Source of the DNA: Burkholderiaceae bacterium
GTDB taxonomy: Bacteria; Pseudomonadota; Gammaproteobacteria; Burkholderiales; Burkholderiaceae_E
NCBI GenBank assembly: GCA_021463505.1
Contig: JAJTYR010000035.1
Location: forward strand, 1 to 36,089
Length of the DNA stretch: 36,089 bases
Direction: 5' to 3'
Both the position numbers and the translations under genes were made by a program. Shown here piece after piece: positions 17,921 through 36,089 of the stretch. Each line of letters starts with the position of its first letter. Position 1 is the stretch's first letter. The notes under the pieces were generated by a model. That model had not been told where the DNA came from. It saw nothing but the letters and a program-made list of their open reading frames with translations, and ran no database searches.

Positions 17921-19236
17921 CGCAGCGCGCGAAGACCGTTACGAGCCGATACCCCGGCGCGCCGCTGGCGAGCCGGCGCAGGAGCGAGCCCGTCGCGAGC
18001 CAGCGCATCGGAGAACTTCAGGCGCGCCAGCAACGCGAGGAGCAGCGCATGGCGTTGCGCGCGCTGCTGATGCAGCCGCTGATGAGCCCGGAACATGCCG
18101 AGTTCCCGGCGGTGCGGCGACACGCCGAGGCGCTGCGTGAATGGTTCGCGCGCGAGACCGGCTGGATGCTGCACGTGGCGCGCGACGGGGCACGGCTCTA
18201 CAAGCGGCCCGCCGACCTGGGCGACGCGACGCGCGGCCTGCCCGGCTACGACCGGCGCCGCTACATCCTCTTCTGTCTCGCCTGCGCGGTCCTCGAGCGC
18301 GCCGACCCGCAGATCACGCTGCAGCTGCTCGGCGAGCGCGTGATGCAGTGGGCCGCCGAACCTGCGCTGGCCGCGCGCGGCTTCGAGTTCACGCTGAAGA
18401 CCGCCGCGCAACGGCGCGAGCTGGTCGTGGTCTGCCGCACGCTGCTCGCGCTCGGCGTGCTTCGGCGGGTGGCGGGCGACGAGGACGGGTTCGTGAACGA
18501 GAACGGGGGCGCACGCGCCGATGCGCTCTACGACGTGCGGCGCCGCGCGTTGTCGGGCGTGCTCGCCGCCGTGCGTGGCCCGTCGACCTGGGCGCCCGGC
18601 GAAAGCCCGGCCTCGCTCGACGAGCGGCTGCACTCGCTCGCCGCCGAGCACCTTGCCGACAGCGACGAGGCCCGCCGCACCACACTGCGCCACCGACTCG
18701 CGCGGCGCCTGCTCGACGACCCGGTCGTCTACACCGATTCGCTCGATGCCGACGCCCAGGCCTATTTCGTCAATCAGCGCGGCCCCATGGCGGCGCGGCT
18801 GTGTGATGCGACCGGGCTTGCCGCCGAGCAGCGTGCCGAGGGCGTGGCGCTGACCGACGAAGCGGGCACGCTCAGCGACGTGGCGATGCCCGCCGAAGGC
18901 ACCGATGCGCATGCCACCCTGCTCGTCGCCGAGCACCTGGCGAGCCGCATGCGCGCGGGCGAACGCGGCGCGCTCACCGACGAGGCGATTGCGGCGTTCC
19001 TGCGCGACGCCACCGATCGCTACGGACGCTTCTGGCGCAAGACGGCTCGCGAGCCGGGCGCGGAACGCGAGCTCGCCCAGCTCGTGCTCGAGCGCCTGGG
19101 CAAGCTGCAGCTGGTCGCGCGCGAGGACGGCCGCGCGCGCCCACTGCCGGCGATCGCGCGCTTCGCGCTGGGCGAGGCCGAACTCGTGCAGCGCGTGCCG
19201 GCCGACGCGGCCGGCAGCACCGGGGCGCTGTTCTGA
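17917..19236 (+). CDS. jetB: Wadjet type II protein JetB (DUF2398/TIGR02678)
   Basis: A 439-residue protein of the TIGR02678/DUF2398 family, the KITE-like winged-helix subunit that joins JetA to the JetC motor. The ATG at 17917 overlaps the jetA stop by 4 bases; the reading frame is open further upstream, but that part is a shadow of jetA. Recognisable parts are RMALRALLMQPLMSPEHAEF near the N-terminus, GYDRRRYILFCLACAVLERA, and RRRALSGVLAAVRGPSTW. Then RHRLARRLLDDPVVYTDSLD and AYFVNQRGPMAARLCDATGL follow. Full length. The stop is 3 bases before the jetC start. Confidence 0.93.
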   Translation: MTQRAKTVTSRYPGAPLASRRRSEPVASQRIGELQARQQREEQRMALRALLMQPLMSPEHAEFPAVRRHAEALREWFARETGWMLHVARDGARLYKRPADLGDATRGLPGYDRRRYILFCLACAVLERADPQITLQLLGERVMQWAAEPALAARGFEFTLKTAAQRRELVVVCRTLLALGVLRRVAGDEDGFVNENGGARADALYDVRRRALSGVLAAVRGPSTWAPGESPASLDERLHSLAAEHLADSDEARRTTLRHRLARRLLDDPVVYTDSLDADAQAYFVNQRGPMAARLCDATGLAAEQRAEGVALTDEAGTLSDVAMPAEGTDAHATLLVAEHLASRMRAGERGALTDEAIAAFLRDATDRYGRFWRKTAREPGAERELAQLVLERLGKLQLVAREDGRARPLPAIARFALGEAELVQRVPADAAGSTGALF

Positions 19237-19239
19237 CCG

Positions 19240-22200
19240 ATGCGCGCCGACCCGATGCCTCGCAACGAACGCAGCGACGAGCTCGAGGGCATCGCCGGCA
19301 CCGCAGCCGCGCCTGCCCGCCCCGCCCTTCCCGGACCGCTGCGCGAACGCTGGCAGCCGCTGCGAATCGGCCTCGTCGAGCTGTTTCACTACGACAGCGA
19401 GGAGTTCTGGTTCCACGACGGCCACCTGCTGCTGCGCGGGAACAACGGAACCGGCAAGTCGAAGGTGCTGTCGCTGACGCTGCCGTTCCTGTTCGATGCG
19501 CAGCTGCGCTCGTCGCGCATCGAGCCCGACGGCGACAGCAGCAAGAAGATGTCGTGGAACCTTCTCCTCGACAGCTACCCGCGACGCACCGGCTACACGT
19601 GGATCGAGTTCGGGCGGCTCGCTGCCGACGGCTGCCCGCACTATCTCACGCTCGGCGCGGGGCTGTCGGCGGTCGCCGGGCGGGCGCAGGTCGAGAACTG
19701 GTTCTTCGTGATCGACGACGCGGCCGATCGCGCCGACGCAGTCGACGCCGCGATGCGCATCGGGCGTGACCTGTGGCTCGTCAACGAGCAGCGCGTCGTG
19801 CTCGCGCGCGAGCGGCTGCGCGAAGCGATCGAAGGCCGCGGGCAGGTCTTCGATAGCGCGGCAGCGTACCGGCGCGCCGTCGACGAACGCCTGTTTCACC
19901 TCGGTGCGCGCCGCTACGACGCACTGATGGACACGCTGATCCAGTTGCGCCAGCCGCAGCTCTCGCGCAAGCCGGACGAAGCCGGCCTGTCGCACGCGCT
20001 CACGGAAGCGCTGCCACCGATGCCGCAGGAACTCCTCACCGACGTCGCCGAAGCCCTCGATCGGCTCGAGGAAGACCGCCGGCAACTCGACGAGATCAGG
20101 GAACTGGCGCAGGCGGTCGAGCGCTTCGACCGGCGTTATCGCGTCTACGCCGGGATGCTCAGCCGCCGACAGGCGCGCGAGTTGCGCCAGGCGCAGACCG
20201 ACTTCGACAACGCGAGCCAGGAGCGCAATCGGGCACAGGCGAGCCTGCAGGCCGCGCAGGCTGCGCAGGTGCAGGCGCAGGCCGCGCACGACGAGGCCGA
20301 ACGCACCCTGGCGGCGCAGCGCAGTCGGCAGGAAACGCTGCAGTCCGATCCCGCGATGCAGGACGCCAACCGGCTCGAGGGCGCACAGCGCGACGCCGAA
20401 CTCCGCAGTGCTGCCGTGGAGCGCGAGCGCCAGTCCCGTGACGATGCAGGCGAGCGCCTGCAACGCGAGCGGGAGGCGACCGTCCATGCCGATCAGCGGG
20501 CGACGGGGGCCGAGCGCGCGCTGATCGGGCAACGTTGCGAGGGTGCGCGCGAAGCGGACGACGCAGGCGTCGGCGCCGAGTTCGCGGAGAACGCACTGTG
20601 CGTGCTTGCGCCCGGCGCGCTTGCGGAACTCGCTTCGCGCGAGTGCGACACGGCGGCCGCGGCGCTGCGCGCCAGCGCATCCGCGCGACGCGGGCAGATC
20701 GCGGTGCTGCAACGCCGTCACGACGAGCTGCGCCAGGCCACCTCGGTGCTCACGCTTCGCCGTCAGGCGCAGAGCGAGCGCCATGCCGAACTCGAAGGGA
20801 CGCTCGGGCGCCGGGATGCGGTCGACGCCGCGGTCGAGTGTGCAGCGCAGGCGCTCGTCGACGACTGGAGTTCGCATTGCGCCCGGCTGGTCGAACTGCG
20901 CTTCGACAGCGTCGAACCGCTCGGACTGCTCATCGAGTGGCTGCAGCGCCCGGAGGGCGAAAACCCTGCGCGGCACGCGCTCGCCGAAGCGCAGCGCGGC
21001 GTCGGCGAGCGTCACGCGGCGCGACAGATCGAGCTCGGGGTGCAACGCGACGCGTTGCGCGCCGAACGCGATGCGCTCGAAGCCGAGCGCGAGCGCCTGA
21101 GCGCCGGCGCCGACAGCGCTCCGCCCGCGCCGCACACGCGCGACCCCGACGCCCGTAGCGCAGTCGTCGGGGCGCCGCTGTGGCAGCTGATCGACTTTCG
21201 CGAGCACGTCGCTGCAAACGGGCGCGCCGGGATCGAAGCCGCCCTCGAAGCATCCGGCCTGCTCGACGCCTGGGTCACCCACGATGGCGCGCGGCTTTCG
21301 GTCGAGGGCGCGCCGGTGTGGCGCGACAGCCAGTGGGTTCGCCGCCCTGCGGCGCCTGGACCGTCGCTCGCCGACTGGTTGCGCGCGTCCGTTCCCGCCG
21401 ATTCGCCGGTACCGGCCGAGACGGTCGATGCGCTGCTCGCCGGCGTTGCCTGCGGCAGTGCAGACCCCGAGACTGCCGAAGCCTGGGTCTGCCCCGACGG
21501 GCGCTTCCGCATCGGCACGCTGGCGGGGGCATGGAGCAAGCCCGAGGCGAGTCATATCGGCCACGCTGCCCGCGCCGCGGCGCGCCGCCGGCGCCTCGGG
21601 GAAATCGGCCTGCGGCTGCGCGAGCTCGACACCGCCCAGCGCGAAATGGAATCCCTCTTCGGGGAGCTCGACGCGCAGCGCGCGCAGGCCCGCGACGAAT
21701 GGCGCACCGCGCCCGCGGAGCAGCCATGGCGCGAGGCGATGCTCGAAGCCGCTGCCTGCGCGCGCGAAGTGCAGGCGGCACGCGCGCGCCTGGACAGCGC
21801 CGAGTCCCAATGCCGCGAGGCCGAGCAGAAGCAGGAGACCGCGCGCGAGGCGCTCGATCGCGACGCGAAGGACCTGCGCCTGCCGACCGAAGCCGAAGCG
21901 TTGCCCGCGATCGAGCAGGCCCTGCAGCGCTTCGTCGATGCACAGTTCGCGCTCGTGCAGGCCGCGCACGAATGGCGCCGAGCGCACGCCGATCTTCTCG
22001 CGCAGCGCTCGCGCGAAGCCGACGCCCGAAGCCAGTGGCAACTGCGCGAGGAGTCGCTCGCCGCAGCGCGCATCGAAGCCGACGAGGCGCAAGCGCGGTT
22101 CGACGTGCTGCGCGAGACCGTCGGCGCGCAGGTCGAGACGCTGCTGCGGCAACTGGCCGACGCACGCGAGGCGGTTCGCGCCGCCGACGCGGCGCTGCGC

Positions 22201-23475
22201 ACCGCTATCGAAGCACGGCAAGCCGCCGGCGAGGCGCGCGCGAGCGCGAGCGCAAGGGCCGAGATCGCCGAGCACGCGCTCGACGAACGCTCGCGGCAGC
22301 GCGCGGCCGCCGTCGAACGCCTGAGGCACTTCACGCGAAGCAGCCTGCTGCACTCGGCGGTGCCTGGCATCGAAGTGCCCGATCCGGGCAGTGCGTGGAC
22401 CGTGGATCCCGCGTTGACCCTCGCCCGGCGCGTCGAGCAGGCGCTCTCCGATGTCGTCGACGACGAAGCGAACTGGAGCCGCGCGCAGCGCCAGGTCACC
22501 GAAGACCTGCAGGAGTTGCAGCGCGCGCTGAGTGCCCTCGGCCACCAGGCACCGGCCGAGGCCACCGACTGGGGCTTCGTCGTGCGCATCGTCTATCACC
22601 ATCGCGCCGAGCGTCCCGACCGCCTGGCGGCGCAACTGGCCGACGACGTCGCGCAGCGCAGCGAACTGCTCTCGGCCAGCGAGCGCGCGGTGCTGGAGAA
22701 TCACCTCCAGGCCGAGATCGCCTCCGAAGTGCAGCGCCTGTTGCGCTCCGCCGAGAAGCAGGTCGAGGCGATCAACCGCGAGCTGCACAAGCGGCCGACT
22801 TCCACCGGCGTGCGCTACCGGCTGCAATGGCAGCCGCTCGTCGAAGACGAAGGCGCGCCGGTGGGGCTCGAAGCCGCGCGAGCGAGGCTGCTGAACACCA
22901 GCGCCGACCTGTGGTCGGCCGAGGATCGGCGCGTGGTCGGCCACATGCTGCAGCAACGCATCGCCGCCGAGCGCGAACGTGCCGACGCCGAAACCGGGCG
23001 CAGCGAGCGTGGCGGCAGCCTCATCGAGCAGCTTGCGCGCGCGCTCGACTATCGCCGCTGGCATCGTTTTCGCGTGCAGCGCCTGCAGGACGGCCAGTGG
23101 CGCAAGCTCTCCGGCCCGGCGTCGAGCGGCGAGCGCGCGCTCGGCCTGACCGTGCCGCTGTTCGCCGCGATCGCGAGCTTCTACGGCCAGGGCGCCAACC
23201 CGCACACGCCGCGCCTGATGCTGCTCGACGAAGCCTTCGCCGGAATCGACGACGCGGCGCGCGCGCACTGCATGGGGTTGATTCACGAGTTCGACCTCGA
23301 CTTCGTCCTCACCAGCGAGCGCGAATGGGGCTGCTACGCCGAGTTGCCAGGCGTGTCGATCTGCCAGCTGCAGCGGCGCGAGGGCGTCGACGCGGTGTTC
23401 GTCTCGCGCTGGACCTGGGACGGCCGAGCGCGGCGGCGCGAGGCCGATCCGGATCGGCGGTTCGCCCCCGCATGA
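19240..23475 (+). CDS. jetC: Wadjet type II SMC-like ATPase JetC (TIGR02680)
   Basis: A 1411-residue SMC/MukB-like ATPase, the motor of the complex. The Walker A motif GNNGTGKS is at residues 67-74. Long Ala/Glu/Gln/Arg-rich stretches (about residues 290-470 and 780-1060) form the antiparallel coiled coil around a hinge-like centre. The ABC signature is in SGPASSGERALGLTVPLF near residue 1290, and the Walker B motif RLMLLDEAFAGIDD is near residue 1325. All ATPase motifs are intact. The ATG at 19240 gives the full N-terminus; a second ATG at 19255 is possible. It overlaps jetD by 4 bases. The open antisense frame across the gene is a GC artefact. Confidence 0.94.
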   Translation: MRADPMPRNERSDELEGIAGTAAAPARPALPGPLRERWQPLRIGLVELFHYDSEEFWFHDGHLLLRGNNGTGKSKVLSLTLPFLFDAQLRSSRIEPDGDSSKKMSWNLLLDSYPRRTGYTWIEFGRLAADGCPHYLTLGAGLSAVAGRAQVENWFFVIDDAADRADAVDAAMRIGRDLWLVNEQRVVLARERLREAIEGRGQVFDSAAAYRRAVDERLFHLGARRYDALMDTLIQLRQPQLSRKPDEAGLSHALTEALPPMPQELLTDVAEALDRLEEDRRQLDEIRELAQAVERFDRRYRVYAGMLSRRQARELRQAQTDFDNASQERNRAQASLQAAQAAQVQAQAAHDEAERTLAAQRSRQETLQSDPAMQDANRLEGAQRDAELRSAAVERERQSRDDAGERLQREREATVHADQRATGAERALIGQRCEGAREADDAGVGAEFAENALCVLAPGALAELASRECDTAAAALRASASARRGQIAVLQRRHDELRQATSVLTLRRQAQSERHAELEGTLGRRDAVDAAVECAAQALVDDWSSHCARLVELRFDSVEPLGLLIEWLQRPEGENPARHALAEAQRGVGERHAARQIELGVQRDALRAERDALEAERERLSAGADSAPPAPHTRDPDARSAVVGAPLWQLIDFREHVAANGRAGIEAALEASGLLDAWVTHDGARLSVEGAPVWRDSQWVRRPAAPGPSLADWLRASVPADSPVPAETVDALLAGVACGSADPETAEAWVCPDGRFRIGTLAGAWSKPEASHIGHAARAAARRRRLGEIGLRLRELDTAQREMESLFGELDAQRAQARDEWRTAPAEQPWREAMLEAAACAREVQAARARLDSAESQCREAEQKQETAREALDRDAKDLRLPTEAEALPAIEQALQRFVDAQFALVQAAHEWRRAHADLLAQRSREADARSQWQLREESLAAARIEADEAQARFDVLRETVGAQVETLLRQLADAREAVRAADAALRTAIEARQAAGEARASASARAEIAEHALDERSRQRAAAVERLRHFTRSSLLHSAVPGIEVPDPGSAWTVDPALTLARRVEQALSDVVDDEANWSRAQRQVTEDLQELQRALSALGHQAPAEATDWGFVVRIVYHHRAERPDRLAAQLADDVAQRSELLSASERAVLENHLQAEIASEVQRLLRSAEKQVEAINRELHKRPTSTGVRYRLQWQPLVEDEGAPVGLEAARARLLNTSADLWSAEDRRVVGHMLQQRIAAERERADAETGRSERGGSLIEQLARALDYRRWHRFRVQRLQDGQWRKLSGPASSGERALGLTVPLFAAIASFYGQGANPHTPRLMLLDEAFAGIDDAARAHCMGLIHEFDLDFVLTSEREWGCYAELPGVSICQLQRREGVDAVFVSRWTWDGRARRREADPDRRFAPA

Positions 23476-24722
23476 GCGACACGCCGGATCCGCGGCTGCA
23501 GGCGCTGCTGGGCGCCAACACGCTGGCGTCGCTGCGTGGGCGCCTGCGCGCACGCTTCGAGCGACTCGACCCGGACGAGTCGCCTGCCACGCTGCGCATT
23601 GCCGAACTGAGCGCCAGCGAATATGAAGCGCTTGCGCTGCTCACTGGTGCGCCGCCGCGCCCCGCGAAATCGATGCGCATCGACCTCGCGCGACTCGACG
23701 CGACGCTGCGCGAAGCCGGAGTGGCCGCGTCGCTGCGCGACGCGCTCGAGCGCCTCGACGGCCCGATCGTGCATCGGGCGGCGATGCGCGCCGCAGCGCA
23801 GGCGCGCTGGTCGACCATGCCGGGAAGATGTCGGCACAGTGGCCTTGGGGGCCTCCTGCAGGCACCGGCCGGACTCGGCCTGCTCAAGCGCCTGGCGCGG
23901 CAGGACGCCGATCACGCGATGCGTCTGATCGAACACACGGAGGCCGTGCTGCAACGGCTGCCGGCAAAAGGCTTGCCCCGCGCGCAGCTCGCCGCCGAGA
24001 CGCTGGGCGACGCGCACGCGCTCGACGCCGGGCAAGCGGTGGCCACGCTGGTGCTGGCCGCCTGGCGGCAGGCAGAGCCGGGCGCGATCCGGCGGGCGTC
24101 GGATCCGGACGACGAAGCGCCGGAAGAGCGCGCACGCGACACCTGGGCGCGCGCGGGGGTCATGGTCAATGAGCTCGCCCGGCCTGCGCTGTTCCTGAAC
24201 CTGCCGGTGCGACCCCCCGAACACCGGCTCGCCGCCGACGGCGAACCCGCTTACCTGTCGCTACGCAGGCTGCTGCGTTCGCCACCTGCGTTCGATGTGG
24301 CCGCGCGTGAGGTCTTCGTCTGCGAGAACCCGAATCTGGTCGCGATCGCGGCCGACCGACTCGGCGCACGCTGCGCTCCGCTGGTCTGCACCGACGGCAT
24401 GCCGGCGGCGGCGCAGCGCACGCTGCTCTCGCAGCTCGCCAGCGCAGGGGCCGGGCTGCGTTATCACGGCGATTTCGACTGGGCGGGCCTGCGAATCGCG
24501 AACTGGACGATCCGCAGCTTCGGCGCGCGTCCCTGGCGGCTGCGCGCCGGTGACTACGAGGCGGCAGCGAAAGGCGCGCCGCGGCTGCGCCGCGACCTCG
24601 ATGACGCACCAGCGGTGGCGGCGATCTGGGACGAAACGTTGGCCCCGGCGATGGCGCAGCACGGCGTGAGCATCGCCGAAGAAGCCGTCGCGGCGTCTCT
24701 GCTCGATGATCTTCGCCGGTAA
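23472..24722 (+). CDS. jetD: Wadjet type II Toprim-like nuclease subunit JetD (DUF2399/TIGR02679)
   Basis: A 416-residue protein, the nuclease subunit that cuts the DNA trapped by JetABC. The N-terminal part belongs to the DUF3323-like region (LAALLTGA-type EYEALALLTGAPPRPAKSM). The C-terminal DUF2399 part is Toprim-like: VFVCENPNLVAIAADRLG with the conserved Glu (about residue 284), then YHGDFDWAGLRIANW with the Asp-x-Asp pair (about residues 331-340). All three acidic positions are present, so it should be active. ATGA overlap with jetC. The gene closes the operon; the next gene is on the other strand with stops 34 bases apart, and no T-run terminator is visible in between. Confidence 0.93.
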   Translation: MSDTPDPRLQALLGANTLASLRGRLRARFERLDPDESPATLRIAELSASEYEALALLTGAPPRPAKSMRIDLARLDATLREAGVAASLRDALERLDGPIVHRAAMRAAAQARWSTMPGRCRHSGLGGLLQAPAGLGLLKRLARQDADHAMRLIEHTEAVLQRLPAKGLPRAQLAAETLGDAHALDAGQAVATLVLAAWRQAEPGAIRRASDPDDEAPEERARDTWARAGVMVNELARPALFLNLPVRPPEHRLAADGEPAYLSLRRLLRSPPAFDVAAREVFVCENPNLVAIAADRLGARCAPLVCTDGMPAAAQRTLLSQLASAGAGLRYHGDFDWAGLRIANWTIRSFGARPWRLRAGDYEAAAKGAPRLRRDLDDAPAVAAIWDETLAPAMAQHGVSIAEEAVAASLLDDLRR

Positions 24723-26441: not shown

Positions 26442-27092
26442 TCACCGGTTGAAGAAGTCCTCCCACTCGACTTCGGTCCACCACTCGGCCTCGAGTCCGT
26501 TGCAGGTCTCGCCGTAGGCGCGGCACATGAAACAACCGTCACCGCGTGCGAGCACCGGGTCCTCGAGCGGCGGATGGCGAACCAGCAGGTCCACGACGCG
26601 CTCGCGGGCGGCCGACTCTGCCTCGCTCATCGCCCGGTCCGGCAAATCGCGAATGCCGCTCCGGCGAAGCCGCTCCACGCCCTCCGGGTAGAGGACGGAG
26701 TTTTCCGCATCGATGTGGCGCCAGAGTGCGTGCGAGTAGCGTGTCGCCATGGCCCGAAGCCGGACGCGATCGTCCTCCGACTGCGGCCCGCCTTCGAGGA
26801 GCGGCGTCATCTCGTGCAACCACGCCTCCATCTCGGCGTGCTCGCGCGTGATCGCGTGCACCGGCCCCCGGTCTGCCGGAAGTTCGGTCTCCGTCACCAG
26901 CGCCGCGAACAACACCCGCTCCTCGCGATCGTGGTGGAAACGGCCGGCGAACTCGGTGAAGAACGCGGCGTACCGCCTGCCGTCATCGGGATCCGCGGTT
27001 CCATCGACGAGTCCGTCGACATACGCGCGCAGGGATCCGAGCACCTGATCGATCAGTACGTGTTCGTCCTGCAGTGTGTCGATCAGCTTCAT
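26442..27092 (-). CDS. Hemerythrin-like (HHE) domain protein
   Basis: A 216-residue cytoplasmic protein from the ATG at 27092 (MKLIDTLQDEHVLIDQVLGS); the frame extends 42 bases further without added similarity. It has a four-helix HHE pattern with likely di-iron ligands in DEHVLIDQ, RFHHDREERVLF, REHAEMEAW and WRHIDAENSVLYP. The C-terminal 50 residues carry GDGCFMCRAYGETCNGLEAE, with three cysteines, which is not part of the usual HHE domain and could bind another metal. Relatives act in oxygen, nitric-oxide or iron handling. It lies 38 bp downstream of the sulfatase, same strand, and after it comes the ATPase relic. The role is inferred from the domain only. Confidence 0.87.
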   Translation of the reverse strand: MKLIDTLQDEHVLIDQVLGSLRAYVDGLVDGTADPDDGRRYAAFFTEFAGRFHHDREERVLFAALVTETELPADRGPVHAITREHAEMEAWLHEMTPLLEGGPQSEDDRVRLRAMATRYSHALWRHIDAENSVLYPEGVERLRRSGIRDLPDRAMSEAESAARERVVDLLVRHPPLEDPVLARGDGCFMCRAYGETCNGLEAEWWTEVEWEDFFNR

Positions 27093-27130
27093 CGTCGATT
27101 CATCCAGGTCCGTTCGCCCAACGCTGCGGC

Positions 27131-28459
27131 TCAACGCTGCGGCATGTCCCTGTACGAGTATCCGACGCTCACCGTCGCATCCTCCGGGATGGCCGGAACG
27201 GTGGCGTCCCAGCGCAACCAGGCCTCGCGCAACGCGGCGAGACGCTCCGGATGCCGCTCGGCCAGGTTGGCGCGTTCGCGTGCATCGGCCGGGATCTCGA
27301 ACAGGTACTCGTGTTCGTCGACCTTCAGATACTTCCAGTCACCCAGGCGCAGCGCCCGCTGGCGACGATGATTCATGCGCCAGTACAACGGCCGCTCGAA
27401 GCCATGGTCAGGATCACGCAGCACCCGCGCCAGCGAAACGCCGTCGAGCGGGTAGTCCGGGTGCGCCCGGCCGCCGCCGAGTTCCAGCAGCGTGGCCGAC
27501 CAGTCCATCGTCATGCAGTGCTGGGCACTGGTGCTGCCGGGTGCAATCACGACTGGCCAGTGTGCGATCCAGGGCACGCGAATCCCGCCCTCGGTGAGGT
27601 CCATCTTGCCACCCACCAGCGGCCAGTTGTCCGAGAAACGCTCTCCCCCGTTGTCGCTGGTGAAGACGATGAGCGTGTTCTCCAGTTGGCCCGCGGTGCG
27701 CAGGGCTTCGACCAACCAGCCGATGCCCTCGTCCATGTGGTGGATCATGCGGCGGTAGGTGTGGATGTTTCCGCCGTGCAGGTGGAACAGGTTGTCCTTC
27801 ACGTCGCCGGCGACCGCCTCGTCGTCGCGCGTCTCCCAGGGCCAGTGCGGCGCGGTGTAGTGCAGGCTGAGGAAGAAGGGGCGACCGGCGCGGGCGGGCG
27901 CGGCCATGCGCTCGACGTAGCCCACGGCACGGCGCGACAGCACGTCGGTGAGATAGCCGACCTCGCGGTGTTCCTGCTCGCCGATGTAGAGGTCGTGGTC
28001 GCCGCGGCTCGAGCAGTGGGTGAAGTAGTCCACGCCGCCGGCCATGATGCCGAAGAACTCGTCGTAGCCCGAGCGCAGCGGCCCGAAAGCGGGTGGGTAG
28101 CCCAGGTGCCATTTTCCGATCAGCGCCGTGGCATAGCCGGCGTCACGCAGCAGCGAAGGCAGCGTCGGGATCTCCGCCGGCAGTCCCAGCGTCGTGCTGC
28201 CCCGGGTCCGGCTGTTGATGGGTTCTTCCATGCCGCCGCGCAGCCGGTACTGATAGCGCATCGTCATCAGCGCGAAGCGCGTCGGGGAACAGACGGGCGC
28301 GTTCGCATACCCGTCGGTGAGGCGCAGGCCACCGGCCGCCAGCGCGTCGATCCGCGGCGAAACGGGGCCGAACCCGGACGCACGCCCGCCATAGCAGCCG
28401 AGATCGGCAAAGCCGAGATCGTCGGCGACGATGTAGATGAGATTGGGTCGTTGCTGCAT
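27131..28459 (-). CDS. Type I sulfatase (arylsulfatase family)
   Basis: A 442-residue enzyme from the ATG at 28459 (MQQRPNLIYIVADDLGFADL); an ATG at 28468 adds three residues. Metal-binding residues are in IVADDLG (Asp pair). The formylglycine site is C57 in CSPTR of NAPVCSPTRFALMT, a type I sulfatase motif. Further markers are GKWHLGY, VFTSDNGGERF and SDNWPLVGGKMDLTEGGIRV. No signal peptide is seen, so it would be cytoplasmic. The cysteine must be converted to formylglycine by a maturation enzyme, for which no clear gene is in the window. Substrate unknown; alkyl- and sterol-sulfates are possibilities, not evidence-based. It is separated from the radical SAM gene by about 210 bp of apparently non-coding DNA, so it may have its own promoter. 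Confidence 0.9.
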   Translation of the reverse strand: MQQRPNLIYIVADDLGFADLGCYGGRASGFGPVSPRIDALAAGGLRLTDGYANAPVCSPTRFALMTMRYQYRLRGGMEEPINSRTRGSTTLGLPAEIPTLPSLLRDAGYATALIGKWHLGYPPAFGPLRSGYDEFFGIMAGGVDYFTHCSSRGDHDLYIGEQEHREVGYLTDVLSRRAVGYVERMAAPARAGRPFFLSLHYTAPHWPWETRDDEAVAGDVKDNLFHLHGGNIHTYRRMIHHMDEGIGWLVEALRTAGQLENTLIVFTSDNGGERFSDNWPLVGGKMDLTEGGIRVPWIAHWPVVIAPGSTSAQHCMTMDWSATLLELGGGRAHPDYPLDGVSLARVLRDPDHGFERPLYWRMNHRRQRALRLGDWKYLKVDEHEYLFEIPADARERANLAERHPERLAALREAWLRWDATVPAIPEDATVSVGYSYRDMPQR

Positions 28460-28671
28460 GCCTGCCATCGATTCGATCCCGCCCTGCTTCGATCGTCTTC
28501 CCGGCGCGACGGGACGCAGCGGTGAACGTCACCTCGTAGCTGCCGCGTCGCTGCACGCGCCGATGCAGGCCAAGTCTACTGGAGAAGCCCGGATGCCGGC
28601 GCCTGTGCGACGAGCCCGGTGCGTGCTTCGTGCAGTTCGTTCGCTACGGGACGCCTCTCCCGCACGGCGCG

Positions 28672-29982
28672 TCAGGCGCCCGGCTCGCGTGTGCCGACGC
28701 GAGTGCGCAGGCGGTCCAGGATCGCGGCCGGTGGACGGTGTCGGGCGACGAACTCGGCAGTGATCCGTGCCACCCCCTGGCTCGCGGCTCGTTCTTCGAG
28801 CAGCGCCTCGAGCTTGCCGCGCAGGAACGCCGGCACCCGCGCGAGGCGTGCGGTCGCCTCCGGCGCCCAGGCCACGCGCGGGCGCGCGGCAGTCGGCGGT
28901 GGTGCCTCCGGCACACGCCCCGGTGCAGGCACGTAGGCGCACTTCGGATCCTCGGCCAACAGATCACCGTGCTCTGCCAGCGCCCGTGCACGGCAGCCGC
29001 CGCAGCTCGAGCGGAAATCGCATCCGCCGCACTTGCCGCCCGGCAACCCGGTGCGCAGCGCACGCAACGTCGGATGATCGGCCCAGATCTGCTGCAGCGA
29101 TTGCACCCGCAGATCGCCGACCGGCGTCGGAACGTACGGGCACGGCGTCACCCGCCCTTGCGGGGTGATGCGGAAATAGCGCCGGCCTGCGAGGCACGCG
29201 CTCGACCAGTCGGCGTAGCCGCCGCCGCTTTCGCCCGCGTGCAGGCCCTGCAGCCGGCGCATCCAGGGCGCGCAGCGGGCACGGATCTTCAGACCGGGAT
29301 GCTGGTCCTGCAGCCGGACGATCTCACCGAGCGTCTCCTCGTAACTCCCGGGCGAGAGATCGGTCTGGGTCACGCCGCGCCCGGTGCATACGAGGAAGAA
29401 GACGTTGAACGCCATGGCGCCGGCCTGCGCCGCGAACGCCGCGAGCGCGGCGAGGTCGCCCCGGTTGTCCTCGAACACCGTGGTCTGTACCACGATCGCG
29501 AGCCCGGCCTCGCGCGCCGCTGCGATGCCGCGGTGCGCTCCGGCAAACGCACCCGGCACCCCTCGCAGCCGGTCGTGGAATGCCGGCGTCGACGAGTCCA
29601 GGCTGATCCCCACGCCCGCGGCCCCCGCGCGCTCCAGAGTCCGGGCGCGTGCCGCATCGAGGAGGGTGCCGTTGGTGCCGACGACGGGCATCAGTTCGAC
29701 GGCGGCGGCCTCGACCAGCTGCGCAAGATCCGGTCGCAGCAGCGGCTCGCCGCCGGTCAGCACCAGCATGGCGCCAGGCGCCATGCGCGAGAGCTGTTCG
29801 ATCACGGCGAGCGCGTCCTGCGTATCCAGCTCGTCGCGCACCTGCGTCTTGCGCTGCACCGCGTCGAGATAGCAATGCGCGCAGGCGAGATTGCACCGGC
29901 CCGTCAGGTTCCACGAGACGATGCAGGGAGGTTGCGGCGCAGGCTCTGGCGCAGGTGCTGGCGTAGCCAACGGCGCATCCAC
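28672..29982 (-). CDS. Radical SAM/SPASM protein with C-terminal PCP_red-like domain
   Basis: A 436-residue protein. An N-terminal Pro/Ala-rich tail precedes the radical SAM core, with the [4Fe-4S] motif in TGRCNLACAHCYLD (residues about 27-40), GGEPLLRPD and GISLDSSTPAFHDRL. A SPASM region follows: CLAGRRYFRITPQGRVTPCP, then GGKCGGCDFRSSCGGCRARA, and DPKCAYVP. Its layout is closest to NirJ and AhbC/AhbD, enzymes that modify heme-type tetrapyrroles. Residues about 370-415, starting WAPEATARLARVPAFLRGKL and ending ITAEFVARH, look like the PCP_red domain found at the end of light-independent protochlorophyllide reductase subunit B. The gene follows the gamma subunit by 33 bp in the molybdoenzyme operon. 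A role in modifying or inserting a tetrapyrrole is inferred; the substrate is unknown. Confidence 0.85.
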   Translation of the reverse strand: MDAPLATPAPAPEPAPQPPCIVSWNLTGRCNLACAHCYLDAVQRKTQVRDELDTQDALAVIEQLSRMAPGAMLVLTGGEPLLRPDLAQLVEAAAVELMPVVGTNGTLLDAARARTLERAGAAGVGISLDSSTPAFHDRLRGVPGAFAGAHRGIAAAREAGLAIVVQTTVFEDNRGDLAALAAFAAQAGAMAFNVFFLVCTGRGVTQTDLSPGSYEETLGEIVRLQDQHPGLKIRARCAPWMRRLQGLHAGESGGGYADWSSACLAGRRYFRITPQGRVTPCPYVPTPVGDLRVQSLQQIWADHPTLRALRTGLPGGKCGGCDFRSSCGGCRARALAEHGDLLAEDPKCAYVPAPGRVPEAPPPTAARPRVAWAPEATARLARVPAFLRGKLEALLEERAASQGVARITAEFVARHRPPAAILDRLRTRVGTREPGA

Positions 29983-30015
29983 GACGCGTGCCTCCCGCTT
30001 CGTCGCGGGCGGCGC

Positions 30016-31044
30016 TCAAGCGCCGCCAGTCTGGGCGCCGCGACGCGCGCGCAATCTGCGCAGACCCGCGAGTTCGACTGCGGCCACGCCGGCCACTGCC
30101 AGCAGCGGTGCTGCGTAGGTGACGACGCCGACCGGTTCCTCGAGGCTGAGGAAATACCAGGTGGAGATCGCCTTTTCTGCGCCGCGCTCACGCTGCGCGC
30201 CATCCCAGGCTGCAAACGCCACCGGGACGGTCTGTCCGCGCGCGAAAGTGAATTGCTCCTGGGCGCGCGGAATGCTGACGACCGCCATCCACGCGCCGTC
30301 CTTCCACACCGCCGTGGCTTCGCCGTCCTGCCGGTCCGGCGCCGCTGCGGCGATGGATCCGAACCCGCGCGCCTGCAGCTTTTCCACCGAGCGCTGCGCC
30401 TGCAGCGCTGGATCGGCGAGCGTGTTGCCGGCTGCCCAGGAGGTCAGGAACGCCTTGTCGCCGTCCTTGCTGGCGTAGTCCGACGGCTCGGCGATTTCGC
30501 CTGGACCACGCCCCGAGAACGGATACCAGTCGACCGTCATGTTCGGGTACCGCTCGTCGACGTCGTCGTTCGGCGCCGGCTGCCAGTCCGACTTCCACTG
30601 GTAAATGGTGACCGGGCGGTCGGGCTCTCCCATGCCGAAGAACGGGATGCCCGTCTTCGGATTCGAAGGGAACTCCAGCGCGAGCGCATCCCGGAACGCG
30701 CTCGTGCCGCCTTTCATCGCGTCGCTCGCAGCATCCCGCCATTCCAGCCGCAGCGCGAGCCGGTTCTCGTCGTACAGCGCGCGCACCGCCACGCCGGCGA
30801 TGGACGCCTTGTAGCGTCGCGGCTTGACCACCGCCTGCGGCGACAGCGGTACGTCGAGGGCATCCGCGCTCTGCCATGCCGGGTCCTCCGGCTCCGCCGG
30901 GACCCGCGTCACGACCCTGGCCAACAGCGTCGCCTTCTGTTGCGCGTGCGCACGACGCGCTGGCAGCAGCAGCGAGCCTGCAAGCGCGGCGAGGGGCGCC
31001 CCAAGCAGGCGCCGGCGTTGCTCCCGGGGCTCGCTCCTGTTCAT
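30016..31044 (-). CDS. Heme-b gamma subunit of a type II DMSO reductase-family enzyme (EB_dh family)
   Basis: A 342-residue protein with a Tat-like signal (QRRRLLG, then a hydrophobic stretch, with likely cleavage after AHA near residue 35). The mature domain matches the ethylbenzene-dehydrogenase gamma family (EbdC, DdhC, SerC, ClrC): YDENRLALRLEWRDAASDAM, FFGMGEPDRPVTIYQWKSDW, and WYFLSLEE. By analogy with EbdC, whose heme is held by Met and Lys, M138 and K222 are candidate ligands. Unlike the soluble EbdC/SerC, residues about 309-327 (YAAPLLAVAGVAAVELAG) form a hydrophobic helix followed by an Arg-rich tail, so the subunit seems anchored in the inner membrane. It overlaps the chaperone stop by 4 bases (ATGA). 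The heme would carry electrons to or from the membrane. Confidence 0.88.
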   Translation of the reverse strand: MNRSEPREQRRRLLGAPLAALAGSLLLPARRAHAQQKATLLARVVTRVPAEPEDPAWQSADALDVPLSPQAVVKPRRYKASIAGVAVRALYDENRLALRLEWRDAASDAMKGGTSAFRDALALEFPSNPKTGIPFFGMGEPDRPVTIYQWKSDWQPAPNDDVDERYPNMTVDWYPFSGRGPGEIAEPSDYASKDGDKAFLTSWAAGNTLADPALQAQRSVEKLQARGFGSIAAAAPDRQDGEATAVWKDGAWMAVVSIPRAQEQFTFARGQTVPVAFAAWDGAQRERGAEKAISTWYFLSLEEPVGVVTYAAPLLAVAGVAAVELAGLRRLRARRGAQTGGA

Positions 31045-31805
31045 CGCATTGCCTCACGGTCATGGCAGGACTGGCAGTTCCACCTGGGGTCGGCCCCGTT
31101 AGCGGTTTCCGTCTGCGCCCCCTCCTCGATCATGTCCGGGCCCGCCACGTCGTCGGGTCTCGAGCCCAGCGCCCGCAACTCCGCCTCGAGGAAGGTCGCG
31201 AGCAACCGGCCCACATCCTGATACACGGTGTCGCCCGCCCTGGCGCACAGGCGGCGCGCGAATCCGAAAGCCCAGCGGCAGACGTGCTCGCAGAGAAACT
31301 CGCGCTGTGCCTCACGGCACAACGCGAGTTGTTCCGCCGGATGTCCGTTCGCCAGCGCGTAGGCCTCCTTCAGACACAGGAAGTGCATGAACTCGAGCTC
31401 CACGCTGACGTGGTCCACGCGCTCGTGCGAGTCGGCAGCCAGGTCCAGTCCGAAAGCCCGGTAGAAGCCCGCGACGTCGGCGAGCGTGTGCGTCTTCTGG
31501 AAAATGTGCGCCTGACCGTACTCGGCCTCGTACGGCGGGCAATCCTTCGACATGGCATGACCGAAGCATCGCGTATGGCCGTCCGCGAGCGAAGCTGCGC
31601 TCAGCGCCACCATGGCCGGCCGCAGCGCCTCCACCGCTTCCCCGGTGGAGGCATCGCCGAGGATCGCCATGCCGTCCGGCAACGGATCGTAGCGCTCCCC
31701 GAGCGAGTCCGGATGCCGCTCGTCCGGATACGACAGCGCGAGCGCCAGAAACGCATACACCTGGCTGCGCGCGTTCGATCTGGCCATGATCCCGTTCGCG
31801 TCCAT
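31041..31805 (-). CDS. TorD-family molybdoenzyme chaperone (delta subunit)
   Basis: A 254-residue protein from the ATG at 31805, which has GGAGG ten bases upstream; the frame is open further but that part lies over the beta-subunit gene. MARSNARSQVYAFLALALSY is the family N-terminus, followed by PPYEAEYGQAHIFQKTHTLA, FYRAFGLD and ERVDHVSVELEFMHFLCLKE, the core of TorD/NarJ/DmsD chaperones that fold the catalytic subunit and guide molybdenum-cofactor insertion before Tat export. Odd is the end: WNCQSCHDREAMR includes CxxCH, a c-type heme-like motif, which is unexpected in a cytoplasmic chaperone with no signal peptide. It may bind zinc instead. Order alpha-beta-delta-gamma matches ser/clr/ddh operons. 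Confidence 0.88.
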   Translation of the reverse strand: MDANGIMARSNARSQVYAFLALALSYPDERHPDSLGERYDPLPDGMAILGDASTGEAVEALRPAMVALSAASLADGHTRCFGHAMSKDCPPYEAEYGQAHIFQKTHTLADVAGFYRAFGLDLAADSHERVDHVSVELEFMHFLCLKEAYALANGHPAEQLALCREAQREFLCEHVCRWAFGFARRLCARAGDTVYQDVGRLLATFLEAELRALGSRPDDVAGPDMIEEGAQTETANGADPRWNCQSCHDREAMR

Positions 31806-31819
31806 CGCGACTTCGCCTC

Positions 31820-33086
<1,267 letters not shown>

Positions 33087-33094
<8 letters not shown>

Positions 33095-33362
33095 CGAGCG
33101 ACTCCCCACGGCTGGCATCCCGCACCCACCGGGCGCGCACTTTCCGGATCAGTGCGTGTACGTATGCCTCGCCCTTTTCCAGGTAGATACGGTGGGTGAC
33201 GCGAAAACAGGGGCGCGTGAACAGCAGCATCAGTTGCCGCTCGTCCCAGCCCAGCAGCAGATACTCCTCCACCAGGCATTCGGCCATCGTGCACGGATCG
33301 CCACCCGGCACCGGCACGCCCACCAGTTCCATCGGATCTTCGATTCCAGCCGGCTTCGTCAT
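33087..33362 (-). CDS. Small conserved-looking protein between alpha and beta
   Basis: A 91-residue product from an ATG at 33362 that overlaps the alpha stop by 4 bases (ATGA), and whose own end overlaps the beta start by 8 bases. Such tight coupling implies that it is translated. It contains CTMAECLVEEYLLLGWDERQ, then LMLLFTRPCFRVTHRIYLEK and GEAYVHALIRKVRARW. The middle reads as amphipathic helices. I do not recognise the family with certainty; similar short proteins with 'EYLLMGW' and 'THxIYxxKGE' segments occur near Fe-S oxidoreductases as far as I recall, but no function is known to me. It has two cysteines and no signal. It is not part of the standard ebd/ser/ddh gene sets. Confidence 0.8.
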
Positions 33363-36089
33363 GCTTTGCCCCGCACCCGGGTCAGCCCGCCGGCGAGATA
33401 GCGGGCCATGACGTCACTCTCGTGCCCGGGGGTGTACCCCGTACCCACCGGTTCCCACGCCCCCTTGCCGTCGCGCCCACCGGGTTGCGCCTTCTCGATG
33501 CGCACCAGCGTCTCCTTCGGCACGGTATTGACAGCGTGGTTGTCGACGTCGAAGCCGAAGACGAACGACATGCTGCCCGCCTTCTTGTGGAACAGACTGT
33601 CCGTCTGGTGCATGGGCGGCGCCCAGCCGCGCGTCACGCTCTGGTGCGAGCCGTAGCGGAAGTTCGACTGGTAGCCGGTGTCGGCTGCCAGCGCCCGCCC
33701 GTCGGGCCGCGTCTCGTGGGCGAGCACGGTGCGCTCGGTGGCGATCCAGGCGCTGTGCTTGGTCATGACCACGCCGTACGGATAGGCGGGGTTGTACTTC
33801 ACCCGCGTGAGCAGGCGAAAGGCCTTGTAGCGCGGGTCCGATGACTGCCACCCGGCGTAGGGCCGGTCCGCCGGGTTCGCGTCGACGTAGATGTAGTCGC
33901 CATCCTCGATGCCGAGATCCTTTGCCGCCTGCGGGTTCATGTGAACGTGCCAGTCGCCGACGCCAGGCTGGCGCTTGTCCATCCGGTACGGGTCGCCGAA
34001 GTTGTTGCTCCAGATCCAGTTCCAGTCCACCGTCGCCCACGACGAGTGCGTGGTGTGGCGGCTCTTCGGCGTCATGCAGAAGAAGCGGAAGCCCTGCTCC
34101 CACAACGGGTTCGTGGTCTGCTTGACCTGCAGCCACGAAAGCTTGTTGTTGGCCACGGCGCGCAAGTCCGCATCGAGCAGTTTCTCCTGCAGCATCTTCG
34201 GGGTGATCCCGTAGTTCTTTGGCCGGATGTAGGGACTCGTCGAGACGATGACGCTCGGCAGGTAGGGCGTCGCTTCGGGGGCCTCGCGGTGCACCACCAG
34301 GTTCTCGCCGTACTCGATCGCCTCGGGAATGTCGGTGTAGGCATTGAGCCGGCCGGTATCGGTGTAGAACGGAATGCTGTCGTGCACCTGCTCGTAGAAC
34401 GGCACCCGGGGATAGGTGCGGAACAGCAACAGGGCGGCACCCGGCTCGCCGTACTTGCCGGCCATGATGTCCTCGACCGTGTAGCCCTTCGTGGTCGTGG
34501 AGTTGTCGAGCACCCGCTGGATGTAGACCTCCGGCTTGCCTTCGAGCATGAACTTCCAGTGGTCGCGGAAGCGCTTGTCGCCGGTGAGGGCGGAGAGCTT
34601 TTCCGCGACCATCGCGAAGATCATGCCGTCGTCCCGGGAATCGTAGACCGGCTTGATGCCGTCCCCGCCCCAGATCTGCAGGAACGGGTTGGAGCACGAG
34701 ACGCCGCACTCCAGGGTCTGGAATTCGAGCCAGGTGTTGGCCGGCAGGACGACGTCGGAGTACTCGGCGGAACCGGTCCATTCCACCTGCTGGTCGATGA
34801 TCAGGTCGATCTTCGGGTTGACGTTCACCAGCAGGTGGTAGATCCACTTCGCCTGGTTCAGCAGGTTCGCATTGTTGTACCACATCACCTTGGTGGGACT
34901 CGGCATGTGGCTCTTGCCGGTGAACACCTTGCGCCCCGCCTCCGGGGTGTCGACGATGAACGGGCGCTCGCCGAAGCCCCAGTAGCTCATCTCCTCGCCG
35001 TGCTCGAGTTCGCGGATGTTCTGCGGCCCGATCCTGCCGTGTGGGTCGAGCACCTGGTTGAAGGGATCCTCGCGCACGTAGGCGCCCCCCACACCGGGTC
35101 CGGACCAGGGGGATCCCTGGAACAGCGCGCCCTTGTAGTTGCCGGCCCAGGTGTGTGCCCCGGAGCCCGGGATGCCGATGCTGCCGACCAGCATGAGCGG
35201 CAGCATGACCGCGCGATTGTGCAGCGTGGCGTGGAAGTAGTGGTTGATGCCCTCGCCGTAGTGGATCGCGATCGGATAGGCCTCGCGCGGCTTGCCCTTG
35301 AAGTCCGGATCCCAGAAGCGGCGTGCGAAATCCTTCGCCAGTCGCTCGATCAGTTCCTTCGATGCGCCGCTGATGTCGCTCACCGTGTCGAGGTCGTAAT
35401 CGCGCAGGTGCACCTTGTACATCTGCCACACGGTCATGACCTCGACTTCGGCGCCGTTCGTCAGCTTCACCCTTCCCTGCCACGCGAGGTCGGGCCCGAC
35501 GCCGAGCGCCGCGAGTCTGCCGCCCACGTCGTCGCGCGAGATCGCCTTGAAGGTCTGTGTCTTCGCGTCACGCACGACGTAGTCGCCCAGGCGTTCGCGC
35601 TGTGCGGCAGTCAGGCCCTGGATGGTGAAGCTCGGACCACGCGAGATGTCCTTCGCGCGATAACCCGCGAGGAAGTCCTCCGGCTTGAGGCGCCCGAGCG
35701 TGTCGGTGCGCACCAGAAGCGGAAAATCGGTGAACTGCTCGACAAAGGCCTTGTCGTACCAGCCCTTCTCCATCAGGTACCGGGTGACGCCGAGGAAGAT
35801 CGCCGTGTCGGACAGGCCGGGGCGCACCGAGATCCAGTAGTCGGCCTTCGTCGCGGTGGGGTTGTATTCCGGTGCGATGACCGCAATGCGCCCGCCGCGC
35901 TCCATGATCTCGGTGAGCCAGTGGGCCTCCGGCATCTTGTTCTCGATCAGGTTCTTGCCCACCTGCACCGTGAACTTGGTGAAGCGCAGGTCGTTCAGAT
36001 CGATGTCGGAGGTCTGCAGCCCGTGCACGAACGGCTGGCCCGGCGCCTGGTCACCGCGCCAGGTGTACTCCGACCACTCGCGCCCGCCT
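33359..36089 (-). CDS. Molybdopterin oxidoreductase catalytic (alpha) subunit, NarG/EbdA-like, 5' end outside window
   Basis: About 909 residues of the C-terminal side are visible; the N-terminus with the Tat signal, the first Fe-S cluster and the molybdenum ligand lies beyond the right edge. Present parts include GGRIAVIAPEYNPTATKADY and ISVRPGLSDTAIFLGVTRYL, then GINHYFHATLHNRAVMLPLM and GSIGIPGSGAHTWAGNYKGA, QVEWTGSAEYSDVVLPANTW, and the C-terminal cofactor domain with MTPKSRHTTHSSWATVDW. The size and the pairing with a four-cluster beta subunit, TorD chaperone and heme-b gamma subunit place it in the type II DMSO reductase family (nitrate, selenate, chlorate reductases; DMS and ethylbenzene dehydrogenases; sterol C25 dehydrogenases). 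The substrate cannot be assigned. Its stop overlaps the small gene by 4 bases. Confidence 0.92.
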   Translation of the reverse strand, partial: GGREWSEYTWRGDQAPGQPFVHGLQTSDIDLNDLRFTKFTVQVGKNLIENKMPEAHWLTEIMERGGRIAVIAPEYNPTATKADYWISVRPGLSDTAIFLGVTRYLMEKGWYDKAFVEQFTDFPLLVRTDTLGRLKPEDFLAGYRAKDISRGPSFTIQGLTAAQRERLGDYVVRDAKTQTFKAISRDDVGGRLAALGVGPDLAWQGRVKLTNGAEVEVMTVWQMYKVHLRDYDLDTVSDISGASKELIERLAKDFARRFWDPDFKGKPREAYPIAIHYGEGINHYFHATLHNRAVMLPLMLVGSIGIPGSGAHTWAGNYKGALFQGSPWSGPGVGGAYVREDPFNQVLDPHGRIGPQNIRELEHGEEMSYWGFGERPFIVDTPEAGRKVFTGKSHMPSPTKVMWYNNANLLNQAKWIYHLLVNVNPKIDLIIDQQVEWTGSAEYSDVVLPANTWLEFQTLECGVSCSNPFLQIWGGDGIKPVYDSRDDGMIFAMVAEKLSALTGDKRFRDHWKFMLEGKPEVYIQRVLDNSTTTKGYTVEDIMAGKYGEPGAALLLFRTYPRVPFYEQVHDSIPFYTDTGRLNAYTDIPEAIEYGENLVVHREAPEATPYLPSVIVSTSPYIRPKNYGITPKMLQEKLLDADLRAVANNKLSWLQVKQTTNPLWEQGFRFFCMTPKSRHTTHSSWATVDWNWIWSNNFGDPYRMDKRQPGVGDWHVHMNPQAAKDLGIEDGDYIYVDANPADRPYAGWQSSDPRYKAFRLLTRVKYNPAYPYGVVMTKHSAWIATERTVLAHETRPDGRALAADTGYQSNFRYGSHQSVTRGWAPPMHQTDSLFHKKAGSMSFVFGFDVDNHAVNTVPKETLVRIEKAQPGGRDGKGAWEPVGTGYTPGHESDVMARYLAGGLTRVRGKA

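What the first reader, a model, noticed from the sequence alone, without database searches (positions are those of the whole stretch)
28672..36089. Type II molybdoenzyme operon extended with a NirJ/AhbC-like radical SAM-PCP_red fusion
The alpha-(small)-beta-chaperone-gamma order matches ser/clr/ddh operons, but a radical SAM/SPASM protein follows the heme-b gamma subunit by 33 bp. Its cysteine layout resembles tetrapyrrole enzymes (NirJ, AhbC/D), and its C-terminal domain resembles PCP_red, otherwise known from a chlorophyll-pathway reductase. Two tetrapyrrole-related hints next to a heme-carrying subunit suggest a modified heme or a dedicated maturation step for this oxidoreductase, which I do not know as a described system.
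Basis: partly seen in the sequence, partly recalled or inferred. Interest (0 to 1): 0.82.

Follow-up and report, generated by a model that had tools for sequence, protein, structure and literature searches.

The report
Heme-type radical enzyme in nitrite-oxidoreductase island
A bacterial gene island for a nitrite/nitrate enzyme carries its own small set of heme-chemistry genes, and in the genomes searched these genes go together with a poorly understood membrane cytochrome, which suggests that this cytochrome needs a specially made or specially delivered heme.

Summary
In detail: 28672-29982(-) encodes radical SAM, SPASM and PCP_red domains, 33 bp after the EB_dh heme-b gene of an alpha-small-beta-TorD-gamma operon. 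Two corrections. (1) The oxidoreductase is not ser/clr/ddh-like: four type II models fall below cut-off, and the alpha matches Kuenenia nitrite oxidoreductase NxrA (1261 bits; about 58% identity for a full-length relative). (2) The gene belongs to a larger island: a second contig of the genome holds protoporphyrinogen oxidase (PPO), a universal-stress/PCP_red protein, a cytochrome bd-like membrane protein, ActD-type and cytochrome c genes. The 49 family members tested all carry the eight-cysteine SPASM motif published for heme synthase AhbD; two NirJs do not. The gene does not simply follow the heme-b gamma subunit: of 22 genomes with a more distant NxrA/NarG-like alpha only 2 have it, on other contigs. 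It follows the bd-like protein: the same 6 of 399 genomes of the order hold both, and 75 of 80 radical-SAM genomes have a bd-like gene (5 do not). Around this core the respiratory enzyme varies: NXR, clade III N2O reductase, or an arsenite-oxidase-type enzyme. Best reading: an undescribed AhbD-like heme-maturation module for the enigmatic bd-like complex. Substrate, product and target are inferred.

The parts
28672..29982 (-). Radical SAM - SPASM - PCP_red protein, 436 aa, GTG start; cysteines C30/C34/C37 and C237, C263, C281, C318, C321, C327, C330, C348 in AhbD spacing
28744..28869 (-). PCP_red domain (residues 372-413) of the radical SAM protein
   Evidence: PF08369 38.9 bits, gathering score 32.5; coordinates computed
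30016..31044 (-). NxrC-like gamma subunit, EB_dh heme-b domain; Met138 and Lys291 align with Kuenenia NXR-C Met155/Lys305; hydrophobic C-terminal stretch
31041..31805 (-). TorD-like chaperone (ATG at 31805)
31820..33118 (-). NxrB-like iron-sulfur beta subunit (635.5 bits to Kuenenia NXR-B)
33087..33362 (-). 91-aa helical protein of unknown family, overlapping the end of alpha and the start of beta; matched in 12 of the 13 NXR-alpha loci (not in L004, whose alpha and beta frames look broken)
33359..36088 (-). NxrA-like molybdopterin alpha subunit, 909 aa, N-terminus cut by the contig end; holds the Mo-ligand Asp (YTWRGDQAPG)

Best explanation
The gene encodes an AhbD-like tetrapyrrole side-chain-modifying radical SAM enzyme. 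It acts with the island's protoporphyrinogen oxidase and the universal-stress/PCP_red protein in a dedicated heme-making and delivery module. The oxidase supplies an oxidised porphyrin, the radical SAM enzyme alters its propionates (decarboxylation or removal), and PCP_red domains hold and pass the tetrapyrrole. The client is most likely the cytochrome bd-like membrane protein (with ActD and cytochrome c) that links the periplasmic oxidoreductase (here NXR-type) to the respiratory chain. Shown: domains, cysteine pattern, island make-up, co-occurrence with the bd-like gene. Inferred: tetrapyrrole substrate, product, PCP_red role, the client.
For: All 49 rSAM-PCP_red sequences tested (window plus 48 of 80 loci) match the full AhbD motif CX20-33CX17CX36-37CX2CX5CX2CX17-35C; of nine outgroups only one (Paenibacillus) does, and both NirJs, the TIGR04053-group three, TIGR04347, MftC and one unnamed rSAM do not. 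For the window protein the three best NCBIfam models are NirJ2, AhbD and TIGR04053; over the 47 members of A1 the lowest E-values are again to NirJ2 and AhbD, and all 47 match them at 1e-30 (ranks per member are not shown there). PPO in the same island passes its cut-off. USP-PCP_red lies within the fetched loci in 67 of 80 and PPO in 44 of 80. rSAM and bd-like are each in exactly the same 6 of 399 genomes of the order. 43 of 80 rSAM loci show a bd-like gene, and 32 of the other 37 genomes carry one elsewhere, 2 of these by a shorter match only. All 6 genomes in which genome search found the closely related NXR have bd-like, ActD, cytc, PPO, USP-PCP_red and rSAM. Related rSAMs lie beside a nitrite reductase gene in Thermus and one gene away from a PPO gene in Halorussus.
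Against: No experiment. AhbD cut-off not reached (249.3 of 500). 5 of 37 genomes lack a bd-like hit (all MAGs); one of them, L077, is an NXR locus, so 12 of the 13 NXR-alpha loci's genomes have it. Co-occurrence can reflect one transferred island. PPO is not within reach in 36 of 80 loci and USP-PCP_red in 13 of 80, in part because contigs end. The bd-like protein keeps ordinary heme-ligand positions, so an unusual heme is not required. SPASM is also the mark of peptide maturases, and the best fold matches are peptide maturases, though no NirJ/Ahb structure is among the 50 rows listed. Tetrapyrrole binding by PCP_red is inferred from BchB only.
Confidence: 0.45

Rival explanations
1. A local supply route to ordinary heme b: the PPO acts as coproporphyrinogen oxidase and the radical SAM enzyme as an AhbD-type heme synthase, boosting heme b for heme-rich respiratory complexes; no new heme.
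For: Full AhbD cysteine motif; PPO family member in the same island.
Against: Hosts are expected to have the classical heme pathway already (established knowledge for Burkholderiales, not tested here); AhbD equivalog score not reached; does not explain the link to bd-like genes rather than to heme proteins at large.
Confidence: 0.22
2. One reading: a modified heme or maturation step for the heme-b gamma subunit of this molybdoenzyme.
For: Adjacent genes, 33 bp apart; EB_dh-domain proteins in 43 of 80 loci.
Against: Gamma ligands Met/Lys in 18 of 18 as in Kuenenia NXR-C, described as b-type heme; of 22 genomes with the distant alpha clade only 2 have the rSAM, on other contigs, and 7 of 7 such operons read carry EB_dh without the module.
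Confidence: 0.1
3. A SPASM peptide or protein maturase that modifies a residue or cross-link in a cytochrome, the bd-like protein or the 91-aa protein.
For: Most SPASM enzymes modify peptides (recalled from the field); best fold matches are SkfB, PqqE, SuiB; weaker hits to peptide maturase models, mycofactocin maturase in 42 of 47 members.
Against: The lowest E-values are to tetrapyrrole models. The 91-aa protein was matched only in NXR loci, 12 of 80, so it cannot be the general substrate. PPO and PCP_red stay unexplained. Precursor peptides and PqqD-like genes were not looked for systematically.
Confidence: 0.13
4. A passenger: the module was carried along with respiratory islands without a functional tie.
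For: Island is patchy: within the genus, 3 of 18 genomes have the NXR, and the window's NxrA groups with loci of unnamed Betaproteobacteria (L003, L009) rather than with the two same-genus copies. The rSAM reading frame is interrupted in both G005 and G009 copies.
Against: The module stays while the terminal enzyme changes; NXR-linked rSAMs fall in several separate parts of the rSAM tree (least 5 changes, 4 forced); the family spans Alpha-, Beta-, Gammaproteobacteria and Gemmatimonadota.
Confidence: 0.07

Closest known systems
AhbD heme synthase (siroheme-dependent pathway; PMC10452713, passages read)
   Same: CX3CX2C plus the complete eight-cysteine SPASM motif with the published spacing; TIGR04545 aligned over its whole length.
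   Different: Score 249 of a 500-bit cut-off; extra PCP_red domain(s); neighbours are respiratory genes plus PPO; the siroheme-pathway genes were not looked for; activity unknown.
NirJ / NirJ2 (heme d1 biosynthesis; PMC12505453, passages read)
   Same: Same wider family; NirJ2 model gives the best score (289.5 of 500).
   Different: Two NirJ sequences lack the full AhbD motif; a true NirJ in sister genome G004 scores 636 bits on TIGR04051 while the window protein scores 163; no cytochrome cd1 above cut-off among the neighbour clusters scanned with Pfam, but cd1 was not searched for as such.
NXR gene clusters with cytochrome bd-like oxidase of Nitrospira, Nitrospina and Kuenenia (PMC6606698 and PMC3578206, passages; PMC8387239, passages and part 1 of its main section)
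   Same: NxrA/B/C, TorD-like chaperone, cytochromes c and a bd-like protein of unknown role.
   Different: The first two papers never use the terms radical SAM, protoporphyrinogen or universal stress in their main text (counts 0); whether those organisms have the module could not be searched here.
DPOR subunit BchB/ChlB C-terminus (PCP_red)
   Same: PCP_red domain, PF08369.
   Different: Here it is fused to a radical SAM enzyme (1 or 3 copies in 81 of 83 cluster members) and to universal-stress domains (1 to 5 copies), without the nitrogenase-like part.

Membership tests
NXR of the Nitrospira/anammox type | Alpha closest to NxrA of known structure | tested here: met
   1260.8 bits to 7b04_B against 126.9 for the next chain, a type II (perchlorate-reductase-type) enzyme; full-length relative L003 1647 bits, 523 identities in about 900 alignment columns
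NXR of the Nitrospira/anammox type | Active-site Asp (Mo), Asn70 and Asp71 equivalents | tested here: met
   Mo-ligand Asp present in the window; Asn/Asp of CxPND seen only in L003 because the window alpha is cut (residues named)
NXR of the Nitrospira/anammox type | NxrC with Met/Lys heme-b ligands | tested here: met
   (18 of 18)
NXR of the Nitrospira/anammox type | Oxidises nitrite to nitrate | not testable with these tools
   related clades include nitrate reductases; direction is open; the genome also has a canonical NarG
ser/clr/ddh type II DMSO reductase operons | TIGR03477/03478/03479/03482 curated cut-offs | tested here: not met
   121.4 of 169.9, 253.7 of 480.7, 210.9 of 984.8 (cut alpha; 288.6 for full-length L093), 105.4 of 152.3
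AhbD (TIGR04545) | Equivalog score | tested here: not met
   249.3 of 500
AhbD (TIGR04545) | Radical SAM CX3CX2C and full eight-cysteine SPASM motif | tested here: met
   SPASM motif in 49 of 49 sequences; C30, C34, C37 invariant in 47 of 47
AhbD (TIGR04545) | Converts iron-coproporphyrin III to heme | not testable with these tools
   needs enzyme assay
NirJ (TIGR04051) | Equivalog score | tested here: not met
   163 of 515.5
PCP_red (PF08369) | Gathering score | tested here: met
   38.9 of 32.5 bits
Protoporphyrinogen oxidase (TIGR00562), island gene on contig C95 | Equivalog cut-off | tested here: met
   225.6 of 97.9 bits

The most novel reading that the evidence does not exclude
The radical SAM-PCP_red enzyme, the USP-PCP_red protein and the PPO make a previously undescribed heme (for example one with altered propionates) for the cytochrome bd-like membrane protein. 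That protein would be the shared electron gateway behind several unrelated periplasmic respiratory enzymes: nitrite oxidoreductase, clade III N2O reductase and arsenite-oxidase/iodate-reductase-type enzymes.
Probability: 0.25. Interest if true: 0.9.

Novelty: new variant of a known kind. Interest (0 to 1): 0.72.

Why it matters
The bd-like protein has been called enigmatic in nitrite oxidizers (Nitrospina paper). If its heme is specially made, its spectrum, redox potential and role can be tested directly. It would also add a branch to tetrapyrrole biosynthesis and give PCP_red a role outside chlorophyll synthesis. The module is a genome marker linking nitrite, N2O and arsenite/iodate-type respiration through one shared membrane component.

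Tried and rejected
Ser/clr/ddh filing: rejected (four curated cut-offs missed). NirJ/NirJ2 filing: rejected on score and, for NirJ, on the cysteine motif. Heme of the gamma subunit as the target: weakened by the distant-alpha operons, which keep EB_dh without the module. The second rSAM-like hit in the genome (29%) is MoaA, and the fourth rSAM genome among the relatives (G004, 36%) is a true NirJ, so both are outside the family. The 91-aa protein: no Pfam/NCBIfam hit, no PDB sequence match, and no fold match at E under 5; function open. Structure of the rSAM protein (mean pLDDT 84.9): generic SPASM fold matches, no discrimination. Paper searches for the combination found nothing (zero papers; three, none holding 'radical SAM').

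Full report
What is there. The window is a whole contig (C50, 36,089 bases) of a 3.58 Mb draft genome. On the minus strand, from the contig end, run an NxrA-like alpha (33359-36088, N-terminus cut off), a 91-aa protein, beta, a TorD-like chaperone, an EB_dh gamma and, 33 bp on, a 436-aa radical SAM-SPASM-PCP_red protein. PCP_red scores 38.9 bits against a gathering score of 32.5, and the same end of the protein matches BchB chains of known structure. No promoter-like site and one terminator-like site (0.7 expected by chance) were found at 28400-30100. The next gene downstream is a sulfatase on the same strand, 203 bp away.

The oxidoreductase. The alpha scores 1260.8 bits on Kuenenia NXR subunit A and 126.9 on the next chain, of the perchlorate-reductase type (the latter name is partly recalled, the entry says DMSO reductase family type II). 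Beta scores 635.5 on NXR-B and gamma 67 on NXR-C. A full-length relative, L003, scores 1647 bits with 523 identities in about 900 alignment columns, and keeps the Asn, Asp and Mo-ligand Asp named in the structure paper. The four type II (ser/clr/ddh) models are all below cut-off. In gamma, Met138 and Lys291 align with the heme ligands Met155 and Lys305 of NXR-C and are present in 18 of 18 sequences. Direction (nitrite oxidation or nitrate reduction) cannot be told. The genome also has a canonical NarG.

The island. A search of the host genome with a universal-stress/PCP_red protein from a same-genus genome found contig C95. C95 holds a sigma-54 regulator, a histidine kinase, a PPO (TIGR00562, 225.6 bits, cut-off 97.85) and the USP-PCP_red gene. 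Divergent from them, running into the contig end, are a cytochrome bd-like gene, an ActD-type gene and a cytochrome c gene; the last two by similarity to relatives, since Pfam on these long frames shows cytochrome c domains but not ActD. No other contig holds the missing 280 residues of alpha at the sensitivity used. In two same-genus genomes and three others of the order the same genes lie in one piece: kinase and regulator where seen, PPO, USP-PCP_red, bd-like, ActD, cytc, NXR alpha to gamma, rSAM. So I read C95 and C50 as the two halves of one island; this is inferred from gene order and not shown by sequence. In G005 and G009 the rSAM frame is interrupted at different places.

The radical SAM family. 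Neighbour profiles over the 80 loci (up to 10 kb each side, many cut by contig ends) gave USP-PCP_red 67, PPO 44, EB_dh 43, bd-like 43, ActD 40, cytochrome c 38, NXR alpha 13, caa3 oxidase 11, AioA-like 7, clade III NosZ 6. The last two names rest on one representative each: arsenite_ox_L 423.8 of 359 and L-NosZ 763.9 of 700. The 7 AioA-like loci also carry a Rieske subunit and MauG-like genes. That resembles iodate reductase IdrABP1P2, whose P1 and P2 are peroxidase-like (that IdrB is a Rieske protein is recalled), but IdrA itself was not tested. The rSAM protein has one or three PCP_red copies in 81 of 83 members of its cluster, and the 63 USP proteins one to five. In the tree of 49 family members and 9 outgroups, NXR-linked rSAMs need at least 5 changes of label, 4 forced by supported branches. 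L005, whose short contig shows only gamma and rSAM, was counted as not NXR, which adds to that number. Yet the NxrA proteins of the distant backgrounds L044, L074 and L077 are 78-84% identical to the window's, so NXR operons appear to have been fitted to different resident copies of the module.

Cysteines. The published full SPASM motif of AhbD from methanogens and sulfate reducers (passage) is present in 49 of 49 family members, with C237-X25-C263-X17-C281-X36-C318-X2-C321-X5-C327-X2-C330-X17-C348 in the window. Of nine outgroups only the Paenibacillus protein has it. For the window protein the best NCBIfam models are NirJ2, AhbD and TIGR04053. All 47 aligned members match these at 1e-30, and also TIGR04347, NirJ, GeoRSP, AhbC and NirJ1; peptide-maturase models are reached by 42 members or fewer. 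Two relatives stand, in annotated plasmids, beside a nitrite reductase gene (Thermus, TIGR04053) and one gene from a PPO gene with a NirK and oxidase genes near (Halorussus).

What the gene follows. Among 61 relatives a near-full-length NXR alpha is in 3 genomes, and the rSAM (E 1e-40) in the same 3 plus G004, whose copy is a true NirJ. Among 399 genomes of the order, alphas of at least 83% identity are in 4 (the window's own included), all with rSAM; more distant alphas (38-42%) are in 4, one with rSAM on other contigs. Among 398 genomes of the phylum 18 more distant alphas were found, one with a strong rSAM match, again on another contig; 13 of the other 17 have only weaker rSAM matches. Seven of these 22 distant operons were read: alpha, beta and EB_dh were there, but no rSAM, PPO, USP-PCP_red or bd-like gene (two of the seven stretches were under 13 kb). 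By contrast, over the 399 genomes of the order the bd-like profile (A2) hits exactly the six genomes that have the rSAM, in five families, and none of the other 393 (the draw is taken to be the same in both calls, as the listed genomes agree). For unrelated draws this would be about 2e-13, but the genomes share islands, so this is not a true probability. Of the 37 rSAM genomes whose locus showed no bd-like gene, 32 carry one elsewhere, two of them only by a shorter match; five have none, all MAGs, and one of these (L077) is an NXR locus. Of the 13 NXR-alpha loci, 7 show the bd-like gene and 5 more have it elsewhere in the genome. Distances were not worked out, so some may lie just beyond the fetched stretch.

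Mechanism proposed. The bd-like protein keeps His and Glu positions that align with those of solved bd oxidases (their ligand role is recalled), has further invariant His, and is described as enigmatic, with heme-b ligands conserved, in the Nitrospina paper. Its regular partners here are a porphyrinogen oxidase, an AhbD-like radical enzyme and PCP_red proteins. The simplest joint reading is a dedicated heme-making and delivery route for this membrane protein. Which porphyrin, which product, and whether the heme is new are open.

Literature. Searches for radical SAM with NXR, PCP_red, IdrA or protochlorophyllide reductase returned no paper. Six papers on nitrite oxidizers, iodate reducers and relatives were searched for 'radical SAM' in their main text, with no occurrence; only passages of them were seen. 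This covers only the open-licence library.

Noticed in passing
window 16388-24722 (+): A complete Wadjet type II defence operon, JetA2-JetB2-JetC2-JetD2, by PADLOC models.
   Followed up: partly
window 26442-28468 (-): A sulfatase and a hemerythrin-domain protein on the same strand downstream of the radical SAM gene.
   Followed up: no
L031, L032, L033, L035, L040, L056: Clade III lactonase-type N2O reductase (L-NosZ; L040 tested against NCBIfam, the others by a profile from the cluster) next to the same module; a pangenome paper reports no nosZ in Gallionellaceae (passage).
   Followed up: partly
L022, L024, L026, L060, L071, L076, L078: Arsenite-oxidase-type molybdoenzyme with Rieske and MauG-like genes beside the module; possibly iodate reductase, not tested.
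   Followed up: partly
L093 16707-17982 and L094 1856-3048: In both same-genus genomes G005 and G009 the radical SAM gene is split over two frames at different places; sequencing error or decay cannot be told.
   Followed up: no
L023 4925-5632 and similar ORFs in Gemmatimonadota loci: A third kind of PCP_red protein, with CxxC pairs, near a gene that looks like ParA/Mrp.
   Followed up: no
window 33087-33362 (-): The 91-aa protein with invariant Cys29 overlaps both neighbours and was matched in 12 of the 13 NXR-alpha loci; no known family.
   Followed up: partly
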